Assembly (NCBI RefSeq): GCF_004363095.1
Contig: NZ_SNYO01000010.1
Span: 1-64,000, forward strand
DNA from: Actinomycetospora succinea
GTDB lineage: Bacteria > Actinomycetota > Actinomycetes > Mycobacteriales > Pseudonocardiaceae
DNA length: 64,000 bases
Direction of reading: 5' to 3'
The notes beneath the pieces were generated by a model. It was given only the letters and a program-made list of their open reading frames with translations. It ran no database searches and was not told the origin of the DNA. Positions 24,887 through 31,629 of the stretch are shown here, piece by piece. The position numbers and the translations under genes are program-made. Positions within the stretch are counted from its first letter, which is position 1; each line of letters opens with the position of its first letter.

Positions 24887-26257
24887 ATGAGTGCCTTCAC
24901 CCTCGAACTGACCCCGGCCCACCACGAGCTGGTCCGGCGTGCCCACGCGTTCGCCGAGGACGTCGTCCGTCCCGCCGCGGCGCACTACGACGCCGTCGAG
25001 GAGTGCCCCTGGGAGATCGTCGACCGGGCCGCGCAGGAGGGCTTCTACAACGCGCTCTTCTACGCCGACCTGATCGCCGACCCGACCGGTCTCTCGCTCC
25101 CGCTCTTCCTCGAGGAGATGTTCTGGGGCTGCGCGGGGATCGGGCTGACCGTGGTCCTGCCCGCGCTGGCGCTCTCGGCGCTGAACCAGGCGGGGACGCC
25201 GGAGCAGGTCGCGCGGTGGGCGCCCGAGATGTTCGGCGAGCCCGGCGACATCAAGCTCGCGGCGCTCGCCGTCTCCGAGCCGCAGGGCGGCAGCGACGTC
25301 GCCAACCTGCAGACGCGCGCCCGCAAGGACGGCGACGACTGGGTGCTCGACGGCGAGAAGATCTGGATCGGCAACGGCGGGATCGCCGACGTCACGATCG
25401 TCAACGCCGTCGTCGACCCGTCGCTCGGCACCAAGGGCCAGGCGATGTTCGTCGTCCCGAAGGACACGCCCGGGATGGAGCAGGTCCGGCGGCTGCGCAA
25501 GCTCGGGCACCGCGCGTCGCACACCGCGGAGCTGTCGTTCACGGGCTGCCGCATCCCCGGCGAGAACCTCCTCGGCGGCGAGGACAAGCTCGAGCACAAG
25601 CTGGAGAAGGCCCGACGCGGCGAGGGGAAGCCGGCGGCGCTCGGGACGTTCGAGCAGACGCGGCCGATGGTCGCGGCGATGGCGCTGGGCGTGGCGCGGG
25701 CGTCCTTCGAGTACGCGTGTGCGTACGCCCGCGAGCGCGAGGCGTTCGGCGGCCCGATCCTCGACAACCAGGGCGTCGCGTTCCCGCTCGCCGACCTCGC
25801 CGCCGACATCGACGCCGCGCGGCTGCTGTGCTGGCGGGCGTCGTGGATGGCGGCGAACGGGGTCCCGTTCCGGCTCGGCGAGGGCTCGATGTCGAAGCTC
25901 AAGGCCTCCGAGGTCGCGATGCGCGCCGCGGAGCAGGCGGTGCAGACCTGCGGCGGCTGGGGCTACGTCGACGACCTGCCCGTCGAGAAGTGGTTCCGCG
26001 ACGCGAAGCTCTACACGATCTTCGAGGGCACCAGCGAGATCCAGCGCATGGTCATCGGCCGCTCGCTGGGCGACCCCGAGGCGACCGCGACCCCGCTGCA
26101 CCACCACCTGCCCGGCGACCACGGCGGCTTGCGCCGGACCTTCGGCCACGGCTCGCTCGCCCGCGCCCGCGCCGGGGAGACCTTCCTGCGCCTGGCGAAG
26201 AAGGCGCCGGACTCGGTGCTGCGCCTCGGGGGTCGCCTCGCCTCCCCCGGCGCCTGA
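24887..26257 (+). CDS. Acyl-CoA dehydrogenase family protein
   Basis: The 456-residue flavoenzyme has the N-terminal helical domain, the FAD/substrate stretch LAVSEPQGGSDVANLQTRAR, and the C-terminal signature GGWGYVDDLPVEKWFRDAK followed by IFEGTSEIQR with the catalytic Glu. It oxidises an acyl-CoA at the alpha-beta bond; chain length is not readable. It is longer than usual (about 390) because of a C-terminal extension LHHHLPGDHGGLRRTF to the end. It is monocistronic, behind an operator-like palindrome, and converges on the alcohol dehydrogenase gene across a repeat. Confidence 0.92.
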   Translation: MSAFTLELTPAHHELVRRAHAFAEDVVRPAAAHYDAVEECPWEIVDRAAQEGFYNALFYADLIADPTGLSLPLFLEEMFWGCAGIGLTVVLPALALSALNQAGTPEQVARWAPEMFGEPGDIKLAALAVSEPQGGSDVANLQTRARKDGDDWVLDGEKIWIGNGGIADVTIVNAVVDPSLGTKGQAMFVVPKDTPGMEQVRRLRKLGHRASHTAELSFTGCRIPGENLLGGEDKLEHKLEKARRGEGKPAALGTFEQTRPMVAAMALGVARASFEYACAYAREREAFGGPILDNQGVAFPLADLAADIDAARLLCWRASWMAANGVPFRLGEGSMSKLKASEVAMRAAEQAVQTCGGWGYVDDLPVEKWFRDAKLYTIFEGTSEIQRMVIGRSLGDPEATATPLHHHLPGDHGGLRRTFGHGSLARARAGETFLRLAKKAPDSVLRLGGRLASPGA

Positions 26258-26259
26258 GG

Positions 26260-26316
26260 TGTGTCAGCGTGGCGGCCACGCTCACGTTCAGCGTGAGGAA
26301 ATCCGCCCGCTCACGG
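26260..26316 (-). repeat. Dispersed double-hairpin repeat, copy 2 (terminator position)
   Basis: Read on the minus strand it begins GTGAGCGGGCGGATTTCC and continues with CTCACGCTGAACGTGAG and AGCGTGGC-C-GCCACGCT. The second stem is perfect (8 bp). In the first stem the CTcACG/CGTgAG arms differ from CTgACG/CGTcAG of copy 3 by a compensating pair. It fills the gap between two convergent genes and includes the stop codon of the alcohol dehydrogenase, so it may end both transcripts. Confidence 0.85.
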
Positions 26317-27327
26317 CACGACGACGACGACCTCGCCCGGCACCGGCGGCGTCGCGAGCGCGCCCGGCGCGTCGTCGAGCCCGATCCGCCGGGTCGCGAG
26401 CGCGGCGACGTCGAGGCGGCCGCTCGCGACCAGTTCCATCAGCCGCGGATAGTCGGCGGCGGCCATGCCGTGGCTGCCGAGCAGGTGGAGCTCGCGGGCG
26501 ATGACCTCGGGCACCGGCACGGTCGGCTCGCTCGCCAGCAGCCCGACCTGCACGAGCGTGCCCTGCGTGCGCAGCGCACGGACCCCGAGCGCGAGCGAGT
26601 CGGCGCGCCCGGCCGCCTCGACGGCCACCCGCGCGCCGCCGCCCCCGAGCGCGTCGCGCAGGCCGTCGGGCCCGAGCGACGGGTCGAGCGCCGCCTGCGC
26701 GCCCAGCGCGAGGGCCCGCCGGCGCGCCTCCGGCGCCGGGTCCACGACGACGGCCTCGGCGTCCAGCGCGCGGGCGACCAGCACCGCGGCGAGTCCCACC
26801 CCGCCGGCGCCCAGGACCAGGAGGCGCTCCCCGGCGCGCAGACCGCCGCGGTCGACGACGGCGCGGAACGCGGTGGCCACCCGGCACCCGAGCAGCGCCG
26901 CGGCGCCGGCGTCGAGGTCGTCGGGCACCGCGACGAGGTTGGTGTCGGCGTGGCGCAGGGCCACGAGCTCGGCGAACGACCCGTCGTGCGTGAACCCGGG
27001 CTGCTCCTGGTCCGGGCAGACCTGCGCCTGGCCCGCCGCGCACGCCGCGCAGCGCCCGCAGCCCTGGACGAACGGGGTGATGACGCGGTCGCCGGGGCGG
27101 GCGCCGCGCACCTCGGCGCCGACCGCCACGACCCGCCCGACGAGCTCGTGCCCCGGGACGAACGGCGTGACGACCCCGGCATCGTGCCCGCGCCAGGCGA
27201 AGCGGTCGCTCGCGCAGAGCCCGGTGGCCTCGACGGCCACGACGACGCCGTCGGGCGCCGGGACCGGGTCGGGCCGGTCGACGACGGTCGGTTCGACCCC
27301 GAACTCCTCGATCACCACGGCGCGCAC
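26311..27327 (-). CDS. Zinc-dependent medium-chain alcohol dehydrogenase
   Basis: The 338-residue MDR enzyme has the catalytic-zinc region TGLCASDRF and PGHELVGRV, the structural-zinc cysteines CGRCAACAAGQAQVC, and the Rossmann motif VLGAGGVGLAAV. It oxidises an alcohol or polyol with NAD(P)+. GTG at 27327 is chosen because GGGGGAG lies about nine bases upstream. It diverges from the YibE/F gene by 54 bases. Its stop codon lies in a dispersed repeat. Confidence 0.9.
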   Translation of the reverse strand: MRAVVIEEFGVEPTVVDRPDPVPAPDGVVVAVEATGLCASDRFAWRGHDAGVVTPFVPGHELVGRVVAVGAEVRGARPGDRVITPFVQGCGRCAACAAGQAQVCPDQEQPGFTHDGSFAELVALRHADTNLVAVPDDLDAGAAALLGCRVATAFRAVVDRGGLRAGERLLVLGAGGVGLAAVLVARALDAEAVVVDPAPEARRRALALGAQAALDPSLGPDGLRDALGGGGARVAVEAAGRADSLALGVRALRTQGTLVQVGLLASEPTVPVPEVIARELHLLGSHGMAAADYPRLMELVASGRLDVAALATRRIGLDDAPGALATPPVPGEVVVVVP

Positions 27328-27381: not shown

Positions 27382-28827
27382 GTGACGTCCTCCCGCCCGC
27401 CGGCGCGCCGCGCGCGCGCCGGCGCGACCGCGGAGGACGACGACGCGCCGACGGGGCCGATCCGGGTCGAGCGCGATCGAGCGGGCGGATTTTCTGACGT
27501 TCAACGTCAGCGTGGACGCCAGGCTGACAAACCCACCGGTCGGCGGCGGCGCGCGGACCCGCCGGCGCCGAGCGGGCACGGCCACGGGCACGGGCACGGC
27601 GGCGGGGACCTCGAGGGCGTGTCCGGGCGCCGGGTCCGGTGGGTGCTCGCGGCGCTGCTGGCGCCGTGCGCGCTCGCGGTGCTCGTCGGGCTGGTGGTGC
27701 TCGCGCCGTCGCCGGGCGAGTACGCGCAGGTCGCCGCGGGCGCCGCGACCGGGCAGGGCGCGCCGGGCCTCGGCTCGCAGACCCCCGTCGACGCCGAGGT
27801 CGTCCGCGCGGCCGGCGAGTCCGACTGCACCGACCCCAACCTGCCCTCCCCCGGTCCCGGCGAGGGCTGCGTGGCCGTGACGCTGCGGCTCGGCGAGGGC
27901 CCGGCCGCCGGCAGCACGATCGTCAGCCTCGCCCCGGCCACCCCCGGCTCGCCGCGGTTCGCCGTCGGCGACCCGGTGGTGCTCGGCTGGGCGGGCGGCG
28001 ACCCCGCCGACCCCCTGACCTACACGATCGTCGACTTCCAGCGCGGCCCGCCGCTGCTCGTGCTCGGCGGCGCGTTCGCGCTCGCGGTGCTGCTGCTGGG
28101 GCGCTGGCAGGGCCTCGCCGCCCTGGTCGCGCTCGGCGTGACCCTGGGCGTGCTGGCGCTGTTCGTCCTGCCGGCGCTGGCGACGGGGTCCTCGCCCGTC
28201 CCGGTGGCGCTCACCGCGTCGGGGCTGATCGTGGGCGTGGTCCTCCCGCTGACCCACGGCGTCTCGGCGCGCACGGCCACCGCAGCTCTGGGCACGCTCG
28301 CGAGCCTCGGGCTCATCGGCGTGCTCGCGGTGCTGTTCGCCGCGACCTCGCGGCTGACCGGGCTCGGTGAGGAGGCCTCGGAGCTCGCCGGGGTGCTCGG
28401 GCCGGGGCTGGACCTGCGCGGGCTGCTGCTCGCCGGCGTGATCATCGGCGCGCTCGGGGTGCTCGACGACGTCACCGTCACCCAGACCAGCGCCGTCTGG
28501 GAGCTGCACCGCGCTGACCCGGCCACGCGGCTCGCCGACCTCTATGGTGCCGCCATGCGCGTCGGCCGTGATCACGTCGCTTCGGCGGTGAACACGCTCG
28601 TGCTCGCCTACGCCGGGGCGGCGCTGCCCCTGTTGCTGCTGTTCGCCCTGGCGGGGCGGGGTCTCGGCGACCTGCTGACCGCCGAGGACGTGGCGCAGGA
28701 GGTCGTGCGGACCCTGGTCGGCAGCATCGGGCTCGTCGCCTCGGTGCCGCTGACCACGGTCCTCGCCGCCGTCGTCGTCCGCGCCGTCCGCAGTAGCAGC
28801 ACCGAGTCCCGGGGTGAGCCCGCATGA
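27382..28827 (+). CDS. YibE/F-family membrane protein with a repeat insertion in its N-terminus
   Basis: The 481-residue protein has a cytoplasmic, charged N-terminus with a histidine run (GHGHGHGHGGG), one membrane segment, an extracytoplasmic part (STIVSLAPATPGSPRF), then about seven membrane segments ending with MRVGRDHVASAVNTLVLAY, the YibE/F mark. Members are predicted transporters or channels of unknown substrate. Residues about 32-50 are encoded by a dispersed repeat, kept in frame. GTG at 27382 is the likely start; a later GTG (27619) would drop both repeat and histidine run. The stop overlaps the next gene as ATGA. Confidence 0.8.
   Translation: MTSSRPPARRARAGATAEDDDAPTGPIRVERDRAGGFSDVQRQRGRQADKPTGRRRRADPPAPSGHGHGHGHGGGDLEGVSGRRVRWVLAALLAPCALAVLVGLVVLAPSPGEYAQVAAGAATGQGAPGLGSQTPVDAEVVRAAGESDCTDPNLPSPGPGEGCVAVTLRLGEGPAAGSTIVSLAPATPGSPRFAVGDPVVLGWAGGDPADPLTYTIVDFQRGPPLLVLGGAFALAVLLLGRWQGLAALVALGVTLGVLALFVLPALATGSSPVPVALTASGLIVGVVLPLTHGVSARTATAALGTLASLGLIGVLAVLFAATSRLTGLGEEASELAGVLGPGLDLRGLLLAGVIIGALGVLDDVTVTQTSAVWELHRADPATRLADLYGAAMRVGRDHVASAVNTLVLAYAGAALPLLLLFALAGRGLGDLLTAEDVAQEVVRTLVGSIGLVASVPLTTVLAAVVVRAVRSSSTESRGEPA
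27475..27530 (+). repeat. Dispersed double-hairpin repeat, copy 3 (inside a coding region)
   Basis: It begins GATCGAGCGGGCGGATTTTC, then has the palindrome CTGACGTT-C-AACGTCAG (8-bp arms) and the hairpin GTCAGC-g-TGG-ACG-CCA-g-GCTGAC. It shows clear alignment with copies 1 and 2, but lies inside the reading frame of the YibE/F gene, in the part that encodes a disordered Arg/Gln-rich stretch. Confidence 0.85.
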
Positions 28828-30374
28828 GCCGACCCGCCCTCCCGCGCTCCGTCGAGAGCCCTCCGAGCGGCGTCCTCGACACCGCGCGCGCCCTCGTCGT
28901 CGCGTCGACCCGCACGGCCGTCGAGCTCACGCTGCACGGCCCGGCGATCGTGCGCGGCATCGCCGACATCGCCACCCAGGGCGCGCGCAGCACCGCCGAC
29001 CTGAGCCCGCTCGTCGCCGACGCGCTGCGGGCCGTGCCTCGGCTGGTGTCGTCGCTCGAGCAGCTGCTCCCCGTCGCGTCCGGGCTGCAGCACACGCTCG
29101 ACGAGCTCGCGCCCGACCTGACCCGCCTGTCCTACGCGACCGACGCGCTCGACCGCCTCGCCGGCGCCGTCGACGACCTCCACGCCCTCGCCCGCGCGGT
29201 GCCGACCCTCGAGCGGATCGCCGGCGCCGCGCCCGCCCTCGACCGCCTCGCCGACGCCGCCCCCGCGCTGACGCGCCTCGGCGACGCCACCGACGACCTC
29301 CACGCCCTGGCCGGGGCGGTGCCGGCGCTGGAGGCGATCGCCGGCGCGGCGCCCGCGATCACCGCCCTCACCGAGGCGGTGCCGGCGCTGCAGCAGATCG
29401 GCGAGGCCCGCGGCGACATCGCCACGCTCGCCGAGGCCGTGCCCGCCCTCCAGCAGATCGGCGAGGCCCGCGGCGACATCGCCGCCCTCGCCGGCGCGGT
29501 GCCCGCGCTGCAGGCGATCGCGGGGGCCGCCCCCGACATCCACAGGCTCAGCGAGGCCGTGCCCGCGCTGCAGGCGATCGCCGGGGCCGCCCCCGACATC
29601 CACACGCTCAGCGAGGCCGTGCCCGCCCTCCAGCAGATCGGCGAGGCCCGCGGGGACATCGCGGCCCTCGCCGGCGCGGTCCCGGCGCTCCGGCAGCTCG
29701 GCGAGGCGGCACCGATGCTCGAGCAGCTGGCGGGCGCCGCGCCGGCGCTGCAGCAGCTCGGCGAGGCCGCACCGCACCTCGAGGAGCTCGCCGGCGCGGT
29801 CCCGACCCTCCAGCGCATCGCCGGCGCCGTCGACGACCTCGGGACGCTCGCCGGCGCGACCGGCTCCGTCGCGCAGATCGCCCACGGCGTGCCCGCGGTG
29901 GGTCGTCTCGCCGACGCCGTGCCCACCGTCGCGGCCCTCGCCGACGCCGTCCCGACCATCGCCCGGCTGGCCGAGGCGGTGCCGACGATCGCGGCGCTGG
30001 CCGAGGCGGTCGACGACCTGCACGCCCTCACCCGCAGCCTCGACGACCTGCACTCGCTCGCCGACGCCGCCCCCGCGCTGACGCAGATCGCGGGTGCGGT
30101 GGACCACGTGCAGACGCTCGCCCGGCACGCCGACACGACCTTCCCCGACGTCCCCGCGCGTTTGAGCACGCTGGACACCTCGCTGACGACGGCGGCCGGC
30201 GAGCTGCAGAAGGTCAGCCCGGACCTGCGCACCCTCGCCGGGCGCATCGACAACCTCGACGAGGAGATCAAGGTCCTCGCGGACGCCCTCGCCCCGCTGC
30301 AGGGCACCACCGAACGCCTCGGGCGCCTCGTCGACCGCCTCCCCGCGGGCCGCAAGGGGCGGTCGGGCGAGTAG
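28824..30374 (+). CDS. Decapeptide-repeat protein coupled to YibE/F
   Basis: The 516-residue protein has no family I can name. Residues 1-102 are helical-looking without a signal or membrane segment. Residues about 103-432 are 33 tandem ten-residue units of the form A-x-A-V-P-x-L-x-x-[IL], for example AEAVPALQQI and AGAAPDIHTL. The last 84 residues (VSPDLRTLAGRIDNLDEEIKV) look like coiled coil. The ATG overlaps the YibE/F stop, so the two are co-translated. A stalk or scaffold role near the membrane partner is a guess. Codon use is normal for the region. Confidence 0.8.
   Translation: MSRPALPRSVESPPSGVLDTARALVVASTRTAVELTLHGPAIVRGIADIATQGARSTADLSPLVADALRAVPRLVSSLEQLLPVASGLQHTLDELAPDLTRLSYATDALDRLAGAVDDLHALARAVPTLERIAGAAPALDRLADAAPALTRLGDATDDLHALAGAVPALEAIAGAAPAITALTEAVPALQQIGEARGDIATLAEAVPALQQIGEARGDIAALAGAVPALQAIAGAAPDIHRLSEAVPALQAIAGAAPDIHTLSEAVPALQQIGEARGDIAALAGAVPALRQLGEAAPMLEQLAGAAPALQQLGEAAPHLEELAGAVPTLQRIAGAVDDLGTLAGATGSVAQIAHGVPAVGRLADAVPTVAALADAVPTIARLAEAVPTIAALAEAVDDLHALTRSLDDLHSLADAAPALTQIAGAVDHVQTLARHADTTFPDVPARLSTLDTSLTTAAGELQKVSPDLRTLAGRIDNLDEEIKVLADALAPLQGTTERLGRLVDRLPAGRKGRSGE
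29130..30119 (+). repeat. 33 tandem 30-base units encoding decapeptides
   Basis: Counting from SYATDALDRL to AGAVDHVQTL gives 33 ten-residue units with no insertion or loss. Conserved positions are Ala3, Val/Ala4, Pro/Asp5, Leu/Ile7 and Ile/Leu10. Some units repeat nearly base for base at a 60-base period, notably around 29398, 29458 and 29638, and around 29518 and 29578, which points to recent duplication. Confidence 0.9.
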
Positions 30375-30385
30375 CGCGACGCCCT

Positions 30386-30439
30386 ACGCAGCGAACGACG
30401 CCCTCGCTGCGTCGGAGGGCAGCGAGGGCGTCGTTCGCT
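30386..30439. terminator. Strong hairpin between convergent genes, with an alternative pairing
   Basis: Arms 30390-30410 and 30419-30439 are exact 21-base reverse complements (AGCGAACGACG... / ...CGTCGTTCGCT) around GTCGGAGG. A competing stem ACGCAGCGA (30386-30394) with TCGCTGCGT (30404-30412) uses part of the same left arm. It starts 11 bases after the decapeptide gene stop and ends 31 bases before the stop of the opposing gene. Confidence 0.8.
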
Positions 30440-30469
30440 CGTCACGGGTGGGACCGCGACGCTGTGGGG

Positions 30470-31483
30470 TTACGAGCAGGCCGGGGGCTCGTGCCCGCCG
30501 TCGTCGGGCTGCTCCTGGTCGTCGGGCTGCTCGTGGCCGCCGTCGCTCGGCTGCTCGTGCCCGCCGTTGTCGGGCTTCTCGTGGCCCTGGTCCTCGTGGC
30601 CGCCGTTGGTGCCGCCGTCCTCGTGGCCGCCGTTCTCGTGGCCGTCCTCGCCCCACTCACCGCCGCCGGGGTGGGCCGGGGTGGTCGGCTCCTCGCAGGG
30701 CTTCGTGGTCGGCAGCGTCGGCACCTCGGGCTTCGTGAGCTCGAAGTCGTAGATCGTGCTCGGCGTGCTGACCAGGTCGACCGCCGCGTCGAGGCCCGGG
30801 TTGCCGCTGCCCTGGTTGATGATCACGCCGGTGACGACGATGTTCGGCTGCGCCGTGGTGAAGTCCGAGAGCGGCTTGGTGGCGTTGCACCGCCGCTCGT
30901 CCTCGGTGATGACGCCCGGGATCGGCTGCGTCGAGCACCAGCGGCCCGCTCCGGCCTGGTAGCGGTGCCAGACTCCGGCCTCGGTGCTGTCCGTGGTGGG
31001 GTTGTAGACCGGCTCGTACCCGAGCGTCGAGAAGCCACCGGGGGTGTCCAGCCCGTTGTAGTCGACCTCGAGCTGGAGGCTCGGGAACTGGACCGGGACG
31101 GTCGCAGCGCCCTGGTACGCCGAATAGGCGGCGGTCGGGATGAACGCCGCGAGCGGCTTGCCGGCGTCCTCGCGGCTCACGATCGAGGCCTTCGCCGTGC
31201 CGTCGGGCGTCTGCAGGCGCAGGGACGCCTCGCCGCCGCCGGTGGGTGCGCCGAACTCGTCGTCGACCTCGGCGGTGCCCGGAGCACGCGTGTCGAGCGT
31301 CTTGAACGGCAACAGATCCGGCAGCACGTACGTCGTCCCGACCACGGGCGCCGGTACCGGCAGCACCGGGTCCGCGTTGCTCGTCCCGACCATCGCGGCC
31401 GCGCCGCCGCCCACGATCAGGGCCCCGGCTGCCGCCAGCGCGGCCACCCCCCGACGTCCGAGCTTTGCCCTGTGAAGACCCAT
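30470..31483 (-). CDS. Secreted protein with a Gly-His-Glu-rich tail
   Basis: The 337-residue product has a signal peptide (KLGRRGVAALAAAGALIVGGG, cleaved near SNADPV). A globular part with two cysteines follows (GRWCSTQPIPG, ERRCNATKP), and after a Pro/Thr linker with one more cysteine (TTKPCEEPTTP) comes a 55-residue tail of GGHE-type units (ENGGHEDGGTNGGHEDQGHE and similar) ending in PPACS. The tail could bind metal ions or the wall; no sortase motif is seen. No known family is recognised. ATG at 31483 is preferred because it begins the signal peptide; an upstream ATG would add 13 polar residues. Confidence 0.75.
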   Translation of the reverse strand: MGLHRAKLGRRGVAALAAAGALIVGGGAAAMVGTSNADPVLPVPAPVVGTTYVLPDLLPFKTLDTRAPGTAEVDDEFGAPTGGGEASLRLQTPDGTAKASIVSREDAGKPLAAFIPTAAYSAYQGAATVPVQFPSLQLEVDYNGLDTPGGFSTLGYEPVYNPTTDSTEAGVWHRYQAGAGRWCSTQPIPGVITEDERRCNATKPLSDFTTAQPNIVVTGVIINQGSGNPGLDAAVDLVSTPSTIYDFELTKPEVPTLPTTKPCEEPTTPAHPGGGEWGEDGHENGGHEDGGTNGGHEDQGHEKPDNGGHEQPSDGGHEQPDDQEQPDDGGHEPPACS

Positions 31484-31629
31484 GCGTGTGGTGTCCTTCC
31501 GCCCCTTGGATGACGTGGCCACCAGCGGTGACCACGATCAGGTAACGAAAAGCACACAGAGGGGTGACGGACGGATTCATCCGAATGGTGGCTCTAGATC
31601 AGCCGTTGGGACGCCGACAGGACGAGCGG
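31484..31629 (-). promoter_or_regulatory. Upstream region of the secreted-protein gene
   Basis: This 146-base region lies between the eutC stop and the secreted-protein start. On the minus strand a stem GTGGTCACC-GCT-GGTGGCCAC (one T.G pair) sits about 40 bases before the ATG and may be in the 5' leader. GGAAGGA about 11 bases before the ATG is the likely ribosome-binding site. I see no clear eut terminator. Confidence 0.35.

What the first reader, a model, noticed from the sequence alone, without database searches (positions are those of the whole stretch)
28824..30374. Unknown protein made of 33 tandem decapeptides, co-translated with YibE/F
Units of the form A-x-A-V-P-x-L-x-x-[IL] run for 330 residues with no break. 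A ten-residue period with hydrophobics at 4, 7, 10 and Pro at 5 is not a heptad or pentapeptide repeat and may form a new solenoid or rod. ATGA coupling to a membrane protein suggests a partner. This is the strongest candidate here for an undescribed system.
Basis: partly seen in the sequence, partly recalled or inferred. Interest (0 to 1): 0.75.

Follow-up and report, generated by a model that had tools for sequence, protein, structure and literature searches.

The report
Length-variable ten-residue-repeat helical protein
A soil actinomycete gene encodes a protein that is two-thirds ten-residue repeats; it looks like a grown-up form of a small helical protein found next to the membrane protein YibE/F in related genera, but in the species that have the repeats its steadiest neighbour is an acyl-CoA dehydrogenase.

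Summary
ORF 28824-30374 (516 aa, Actinomycetospora) has 33 unbroken decads (residues 104-433) and starts in an ATGA overlap with a YibE/F gene. Hydrophobics are spaced 3-3-4, period 3.33. All 18 genomes of the genus searched carry the gene; the 16 full copies have 16-39 decads, with length changing only in steps of ten within each of two lineages. No known family could be accepted. It is an array-expanded form of a small helical protein that lies downstream of YibE/F in 37 of 38 short-homolog loci examined, in a block that is syntenic as a whole. A second genus (12 of 62 genomes) also has the array, with proline shifted or absent. YibE/F is not the constant partner: adjacent in 9 of 18 Actinomycetospora genomes and in 0 of 4 tested in the second genus. 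One acyl-CoA dehydrogenase tracks the array: upstream in 16 of 16 readable Actinomycetospora loci, and within about 7 kb in 12 of 12 array genomes of the second genus, against 1 of its other 50. Best reading: a cytosolic, length-variable helical rod or scaffold tied to acyl-CoA metabolism. Fold unresolved; function inferred from gene context only.

The parts
28824..30374 (+). decad-repeat protein gene, 516 aa
   Evidence: homologs in 18 of 18 genomes of the genus searched (two are partial copies at contig ends)
28824..29132 (+). N-terminal region, residues 1-103; outside the strict array
   Evidence: conserved among 7 aligned copies; dN/dS 0.04-0.29; hydrophobic period about 3.54
29133..30122 (+). 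decapeptide array, residues 104-433, 33 unbroken units, hydrophobic spacing 3-3-4
30123..30371 (+). C-terminal region, residues 434-516; heptad-like period 3.48 (residues 434-508) and a LAPLQGTTERLGRLVDRLP motif shared with the nearest short homologs
27382..28827 (+). YibE/F gene (PF07907, 239.1 bits, E 6.6e-71); the GTG start is my choice; overlaps the next gene by ATGA
26311..27327 (-). zinc-type alcohol dehydrogenase-like gene (name by my own reading, start approximate), between the acyl-CoA dehydrogenase and YibE/F in the window and one relative (L040) only
24887..26257 (+). acyl-CoA dehydrogenase, the neighbour that tracks the array across two genera
   Evidence: Pfam; synteny; co-occurrence
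30390..30439 (.). 21-bp inverted repeat with 8-nt loop just after the stop, between convergent genes; no T-tract
   Evidence: -58.8 kcal/mol, z -6.9 (for 30372-30450)

Best explanation
The gene encodes a soluble, cytosolic, almost wholly helical protein whose middle is a length-variable rod of ten-residue units (three hydrophobics per ten residues). It arose when a small (very roughly 80-230 aa) helical protein, encoded next to YibE/F in many Pseudonocardiaceae, gained an array between its N- and C-terminal parts. SHOWN: the array, its register, the shared C-terminal motif, array length differing by whole units, separation from YibE/F in array-bearing lineages, and tight linkage to one acyl-CoA dehydrogenase. 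INFERRED: the conserved ends carry the binding sites; the array is a spacer or multivalent scaffold whose helices associate through a strongly left-handed 3-3-4 stripe, with Pro/Gly near positions 4-5 acting as hinges or kinks; and the scaffold organises acyl-CoA dehydrogenase (and, in the second genus, an SCP2-type lipid carrier) at the membrane or at a lipid inclusion, with YibE/F as an older, dispensable neighbour.
For: One long in-register run in each full copy: 16-39 units in 16 Actinomycetospora copies and 9-41 units in 12 of the second genus by a pattern count. Anchor-to-anchor length is 3 mod 10 in 9 of 9 copies of one Actinomycetospora lineage and 6 mod 10 in 7 of 7 of the other, over 186-413 residues. 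Same C-terminal motif in the nearest short homologs. No transmembrane or signal segment seen by eye (no predictor was run). Helix predicted. Acyl-CoA dehydrogenase upstream on the same strand in 16 of 16 Actinomycetospora loci with enough sequence, out of 18 genomes. In the second genus the same subfamily (49-52% identity, E 1e-125 to 1e-129; the next hits in the list are 36-41%) occurs in 12 of 12 array genomes, 1.7-7.1 kb away, and in 1 of 50 others (Fisher p 6e-12, which ignores relatedness; the cut at E 1e-120 was chosen after seeing the gap in the list). An SCP2-family gene lies 22 bp upstream of it in L193.
Against: No direct evidence of any function or interaction. The linkage may be inheritance by descent: the second-genus array genomes may be one clade, which I did not test. 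One genome of the second genus (G710) has the dehydrogenase and its SCP2-like neighbour without any array gene within the 20 kb read; G023, of another genus, has the dehydrogenase on a different contig from its short homolog; G025 has a short homolog and no such dehydrogenase. In the second genus two to eight genes lie between array gene and dehydrogenase in the three loci listed, and the order is reversed relative to Actinomycetospora. In the second genus anchor distances are not constant mod 10 (3, 0 and 5 in 4, 2 and 2 of the 8 that could be measured), because a non-repeat linker after the array varies. A period of 3.33 is taken as the lower limit for coiled coils (PMC4786415, passages read), so a long continuous decad coiled coil is physically strained. 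The full-length model has pLDDT 42.
Confidence: 0.4

Rival explanations
1. Cytosolic partner of YibE/F: the protein binds the cytosolic face of the YibE/F membrane protein, and the array sets its reach.
For: ATGA overlap in 9 of 9 loci where the two are adjacent; short homolog downstream of YibE/F in 37 of 38 short-homolog loci, in 12 genera.
Against: Pair separated in 6 of 18 Actinomycetospora genomes and in 4 of 4 tested second-genus genomes; YibE/F not found in G010 (97% complete) although its array gene is full length. Two genomes of genus g63 have a short homolog and no YibE/F match. Other genes of the block are conserved as well.
Confidence: 0.25
2. The array is an alpha-solenoid or zig-zag of helices of about 9 residues, each beginning at Pro/Asp near positions 4-5, not a continuous helix.
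For: Of the units that contain Pro, 263 of 265 in Actinomycetospora have it at position 4 and 130 of 156 in the second genus at position 5, before the central Leu, where helices tend to start (recalled); Gly is common at positions 1 and 4. In the low-confidence full-length model 7 of the 12 helix breaks in the array fall on position 2 of Pro-containing units, and three helices are 9 residues long.
Against: The 100-residue fragment with 47 aligned rows is one helix over residues 2-99 at mean pLDDT 88; but the other four models of that run scored 76, 67, 56 and 50.
Confidence: 0.35
3. Surface-active coat, analogous to phasins, perilipins or apolipoproteins, on lipid or polyester inclusions.
For: Ala/Leu/Val-rich amphipathic units and acyl-CoA dehydrogenase and SCP2 neighbours.
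Against: On a straight alpha-helix the stripe does not stay on one face: the mean hydrophobic moment at 100 degrees falls from 0.41 (11 residues) to 0.09 (60 residues). No match to such a coat family was listed by Pfam or NCBIfam.
Confidence: 0.2
4. Array length is a neutral by-product of slippage or recombination between 30-bp DNA units; only the ends matter.
For: Unequal exchange between 30-bp units would by itself give steps of ten residues; length varies from 16 to 39 units within one genus.
Against: Each of the 16 full Actinomycetospora copies keeps one long in-register run, none lacks an array, and array dN/dS is below 1 in 6 of 6 comparisons.
Confidence: 0.2

Closest known systems
Stammer/decad segments in coiled coils (PMC4786415; PMC9369452, PDB 3aqb)
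   Same: Ten residues with hydrophobic spacing 3-3-4 (10/3 = 3.33).
   Different: In the passages read decads are local strained segments; here 16 or more follow one another in every full Actinomycetospora copy.
Nonad alpha/beta coiled coils, Tcar0761 (PMC4786415)
   Same: Long run (14) of near-identical short repeats of unusual period in a bacterial helical protein.
   Different: Nine-residue period with beta-layers and an [aliphatic]-A-T-K-[polar]-[DE] motif; period and motif differ here.
p180/RRBP1 decapeptide repeats (PMC8732269)
   Same: Tens of tandem decapeptides in one protein (41 in that paper).
   Different: Positively charged, ribosome- and microtubule-binding, eukaryotic (passages read); lacks the hydrophobic 3-3-4 pattern (recalled).
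YibE/F family, PF07907, TC 9.B.141
   Same: Adjacent gene, ATGA overlap.
   Different: A different protein, a membrane family without known function (TC number from PMC3924187, passage read).

Membership tests
Canonical heptad coiled coil | Hydrophobic period of 3.5 | tested here: not met
   Array power 16.2 at 3.33 against 0.05 at 3.5; the C-terminal region does show 3.48
Hendecad (11/3) or apolipoprotein-like helix | Period 3.67 | tested here: not met
   Power about 0 at 3.67
Decad (10/3) coiled coil | 3-3-4 hydrophobic spacing | tested here: met
Decad (10/3) coiled coil | Two or more helices packed together | not testable with these tools
   Only single chains can be predicted; the fragment comes out as one helix
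PF11075 DUF2780 | Match across the family domain, shared by homologs | tested here: not met
   40.9 bits (cut-off 27.5), but over 68 of 176 profile positions, inside the array. The one second-genus array scanned instead passes the cut-offs of Spectrin_Anc-1 (53.8 bits) and T6SS_VipA (26.2 bits), and does not list DUF2780. I read these as repeat-driven matches
PF25472 DUF7902 | Match across the family domain, shared by homologs | tested here: not met
   34.6 bits (cut-off 26), 50 of 85 positions, inside the array; not listed for the second-genus array
Bacterial leucine-rich repeat (YopM/SspH type) | LxxLxLxxN-type repeat (motif recalled) | tested here: not met
   phmmer hit to YopM E 4.3e-11, but the array contains no Asn at all (composition)
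YibE/F operon partner | Conserved adjacency | tested here: inconclusive
   9 of 18 in the genus, 37 of 38 short-homolog loci in other genera, 0 of 4 in the second array genus
MCE helical region | TIGR00996 match above cut-off | tested here: not met
   Two short homologs 17.7 and 16.1 bits against cut-off 140.5; the window protein itself did not list it

The most novel reading that the evidence does not exclude
A natural protein built of up to about 40 consecutive 10/3 decads, either the first continuous decad coiled-coil rod (at the lower period limit stated for coiled coils) or a proline-hinged solenoid of nine-residue helices, that serves as a tunable-length scaffold for acyl-CoA metabolism in actinomycetes.
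Probability: 0.3. Interest if true: 0.7.

Novelty: new variant of a known kind. Interest (0 to 1): 0.5.

Why it matters
Coiled-coil theory places 3.33 residues per turn at the strained edge of what helices tolerate, seen as isolated stammers (PMC4786415, passages read). Long, natural, length-variable arrays of this period in two genera, with proline at different places and in about half of the units, are a ready test of whether a continuous decad rod can exist or whether such sequences must break into short helices. The gene context also points to an undescribed helical companion of an acyl-CoA dehydrogenase, and gives a small uncharacterised protein family a defined place beside YibE/F, itself of unknown function.

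Tried and rejected
Known-family filing: Pfam DUF2780 and DUF7902 pass their cut-offs but only inside the array, and the one homologous array scanned hits other families. NCBIfam gave nothing near a cut-off. YopM/SspH leucine-rich repeats were rejected for lack of Asn. PDB hits of the short-family profile look like generic coiled coils, apart from YopM; the decad profile listed only 3jqh, E 0.0014, up to E 0.01. YibE/F has no solved relative up to E 1. The full-length AlphaFold model was too poor to use, and I ran no fold search because the good fragment is a single helix. YibE/F as obligate partner was weakened by synteny and absence.

Decad arrays elsewhere: profile A4, at E <= 1e-8, matched only the own genome among 296 phylum genomes, and the own genome and one second-genus genome among 249 order genomes; only some first-look candidates per genome were scored, and sparse or diverged arrays would be missed. 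The wider-phylum search with profile A1 gave 4 weak hits besides the own genome in 296 genomes, which I did not follow. Of 63 family genomes with an A1 hit up to E 1e-3, 10 are Actinomycetospora, 42 were examined and 11, most of them weak, were not examined there; one of these (G114) was read later.

Paper searches: YibE/F terms, decad or decapeptide repeats, stammers, Actinomycetospora with repeat protein. Judged from the listings, none describes this protein; only the best-ranked papers were listed, and the library holds open-licence papers only. Papers seen: passages of PMC4786415, PMC9369452, PMC3924187, PMC13227979 and PMC8732269; search listings only for the rest.

That raised the dehydrogenase count from 15 of 15 to 16 of 16, confirmed the G710 exception, and added the second-genus anchor result.
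Full report
What is there. The ORF 28824-30374 (+) encodes 516 residues. Residues 104-433 are 33 ten-residue units without a break of register. Their hydrophobic residues recur mostly at 3-3-4, a spectral period of 3.33 with near-zero power at 3.5 and 3.67. Self-identity at lags 10 and 20 lies 15 and 23 standard deviations above 5000 shuffles. The N-terminal 103 residues and the region after residue 433 lie outside the strict array; the C-terminal region has an ordinary heptad-like period of 3.48. The gene begins in an ATGA overlap with a YibE/F gene (PF07907, E 6.6e-71).

Where it occurs. The organism belongs to Actinomycetospora: the six named loci L080-L085 are homologs, and their contig lengths equal those of six genomes of the window's own genus group. 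All 18 genomes of that genus searched carry the gene, two as partial copies at contig ends. The 16 full copies have 16-39 units in their longest in-register run. The distance between flanking anchors is 3 mod 10 in 9 of 9 copies of one lineage and 6 mod 10 in 7 of 7 of the other, for distances of 186 to 413 residues. Exchange between 30-bp DNA units would favour such steps, so this shows kept register, not by itself selection on length. Array dN/dS of 0.17-0.61 in six comparisons shows selection on sequence.

Origin. A profile of the C-terminal region and short homologs (A1) matched 63 of 200 genomes of the family at E <= 1e-3, in 21 of 46 genera, some weakly; in 296 genomes of the phylum it gave four weak matches besides the own genome. 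I examined 42 loci outside Actinomycetospora: 38 hold a short homolog and 4 an array of the second genus. In 37 of the 38 the short gene lies downstream of YibE/F on the same strand, in 12 genera; starts were chosen by script, so lengths (about 80-230 aa) are approximate. Neighbouring genes of these loci are conserved too, so the adjacency may reflect an old syntenic block and not only function. The array thus lies between the two ends of a small helical protein.

A second array lineage. Another genus of the family, unnamed here (group g5; perhaps Pseudonocardia, a guess from recall), has the same C-terminal motif and an array in 12 of 62 genomes. Its units keep the 3-3-4 pattern (spectral peak 3.33-3.34 in the two tested), but proline is mostly at position 5 instead of 4; 265 of 484 Actinomycetospora units contain Pro, 156 of 327 in g5. 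So the period, not the proline, is the constant feature. Against strict spacing: anchor distances in g5 fall in three classes mod 10 (3, 0, 5 in 4, 2 and 2 of 8 measurable copies), because a linker after the array varies. The decad profile A4 matched no further genome in 296 phylum and 249 order genomes at E <= 1e-8 beyond the own one and one of g5.

Partners. In Actinomycetospora YibE/F is adjacent in 9 of 18 genomes, elsewhere in 6, and not found in 3, of which one is 97% complete and two are fragmentary. A YibE/F tree with 9 adjacent copies and 5 of the 6 relocated ones puts them as sister groups within one fully supported genus clade, so position changed and the gene was not replaced. In g5, 4 of 4 tested array genomes have YibE/F elsewhere. 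By contrast the acyl-CoA dehydrogenase at 24887-26257 has its counterpart upstream, on the same strand, in 16 of 16 Actinomycetospora loci with enough sequence: acyl-CoA dehydrogenase, YibE/F, array gene in one lineage; acyl-CoA dehydrogenase, array gene in the other (counting the window). In the window and one relative an opposite-strand gene lies in between. In g5 the same subfamily (49-52% identity, against 36-41% for the next hits) is present in 13 of 62 genomes: in 12 of 12 with the array, at 1.7-7.1 kb between match starts, and in 1 of 50 without. That one, G710, has no array gene in the 20 kb around it. Fisher's p of 6e-12 ignores relatedness. In L193 an SCP2-family gene sits 22 bp upstream of the dehydrogenase.

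Structure. The full-length AlphaFold model is helical but unreliable (mean pLDDT 42); 7 of its 12 helix breaks in the array fall on position 2 of a unit with proline at position 4. A 100-residue array fragment aligned with 46 further pieces from the window and six named relatives gives a single helix at pLDDT 88, with the other four models at 76, 67, 56 and 50. A continuous helix with this stripe would need a left-handed supercoil of about 45 residues per turn (108 minus 100 degrees per residue; my arithmetic), much tighter than a heptad coil. PMC4786415 (passages read) takes 3.33 as the lower limit of coiled-coil periodicity and reports that stammers are absorbed by a short 3-10 segment. Hence either this is a very strained rod eased by Pro/Gly kinks, or a chain of helices of about nine residues. 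I cannot decide.

Mechanism. I think it most likely that the protein is a cytosolic helical spacer or scaffold: the conserved ends bind, the array sets reach or offers repeated docking faces, and the working context is acyl-CoA or lipid metabolism with the linked dehydrogenase. Only the sequence anatomy and the linkage are shown. YibE/F partnership, a lipid-inclusion coat, and neutral array growth remain open.

Known kinds. No family membership is accepted: two Pfam DUFs pass their cut-off only within the array and are not listed for the homologous array scanned. It works like a coiled-coil or helical-repeat spacer, but with a decad period for which my searches turned up only local precedents.

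Noticed in passing
window 30470-31522 (-): Protein with an apparent N-terminal signal segment (by eye) and a C-terminal His/Glu/Asp/Gly-rich low-complexity tail, convergent with the array gene; counterpart in 7 of 8 fetched loci of the YibE/F-adjacent lineage (not in L005) and in 0 of 7 of the other lineage; no Pfam family above cut-off.
   Followed up: partly
window 27382-27620: The YibE/F protein has an N-terminal His/Gly run (GHGHGHGHGGG) before its first apparent transmembrane segment, possibly metal-binding.
   Followed up: no
window 30390-30439: A 21-bp perfect inverted repeat with 8-nt loop between convergent genes, without a T-tract; fold z -6.9.
   Followed up: partly
window 26311-27327 (-): An alcohol dehydrogenase-like gene on the opposite strand between the acyl-CoA dehydrogenase and YibE/F, in the window and one relative (L040) only.
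   Followed up: partly
L185 (second genus, G743), near a contig end: A 602-residue open frame that starts with a long run of HRLEHLT/HRLEDLT-type heptads; it matched profile A1 (E 1.4e-7), which I took for a generic coiled-coil match; a striking near-perfect heptad frame.
   Followed up: no
L193 6789-7671 (-) and similar second-genus loci: One or two small, apparently secreted proteins (Ser/Thr/Gln/Asn-rich) between the array gene and the dehydrogenase cluster.
   Followed up: no
SAUSA300_0442-0443, from PMC13227979: Two YibE/F-like genes are listed in a table of staphylococcal genes with decreased fitness in blood (passage read): one of few functional hints for this family.
   Followed up: no
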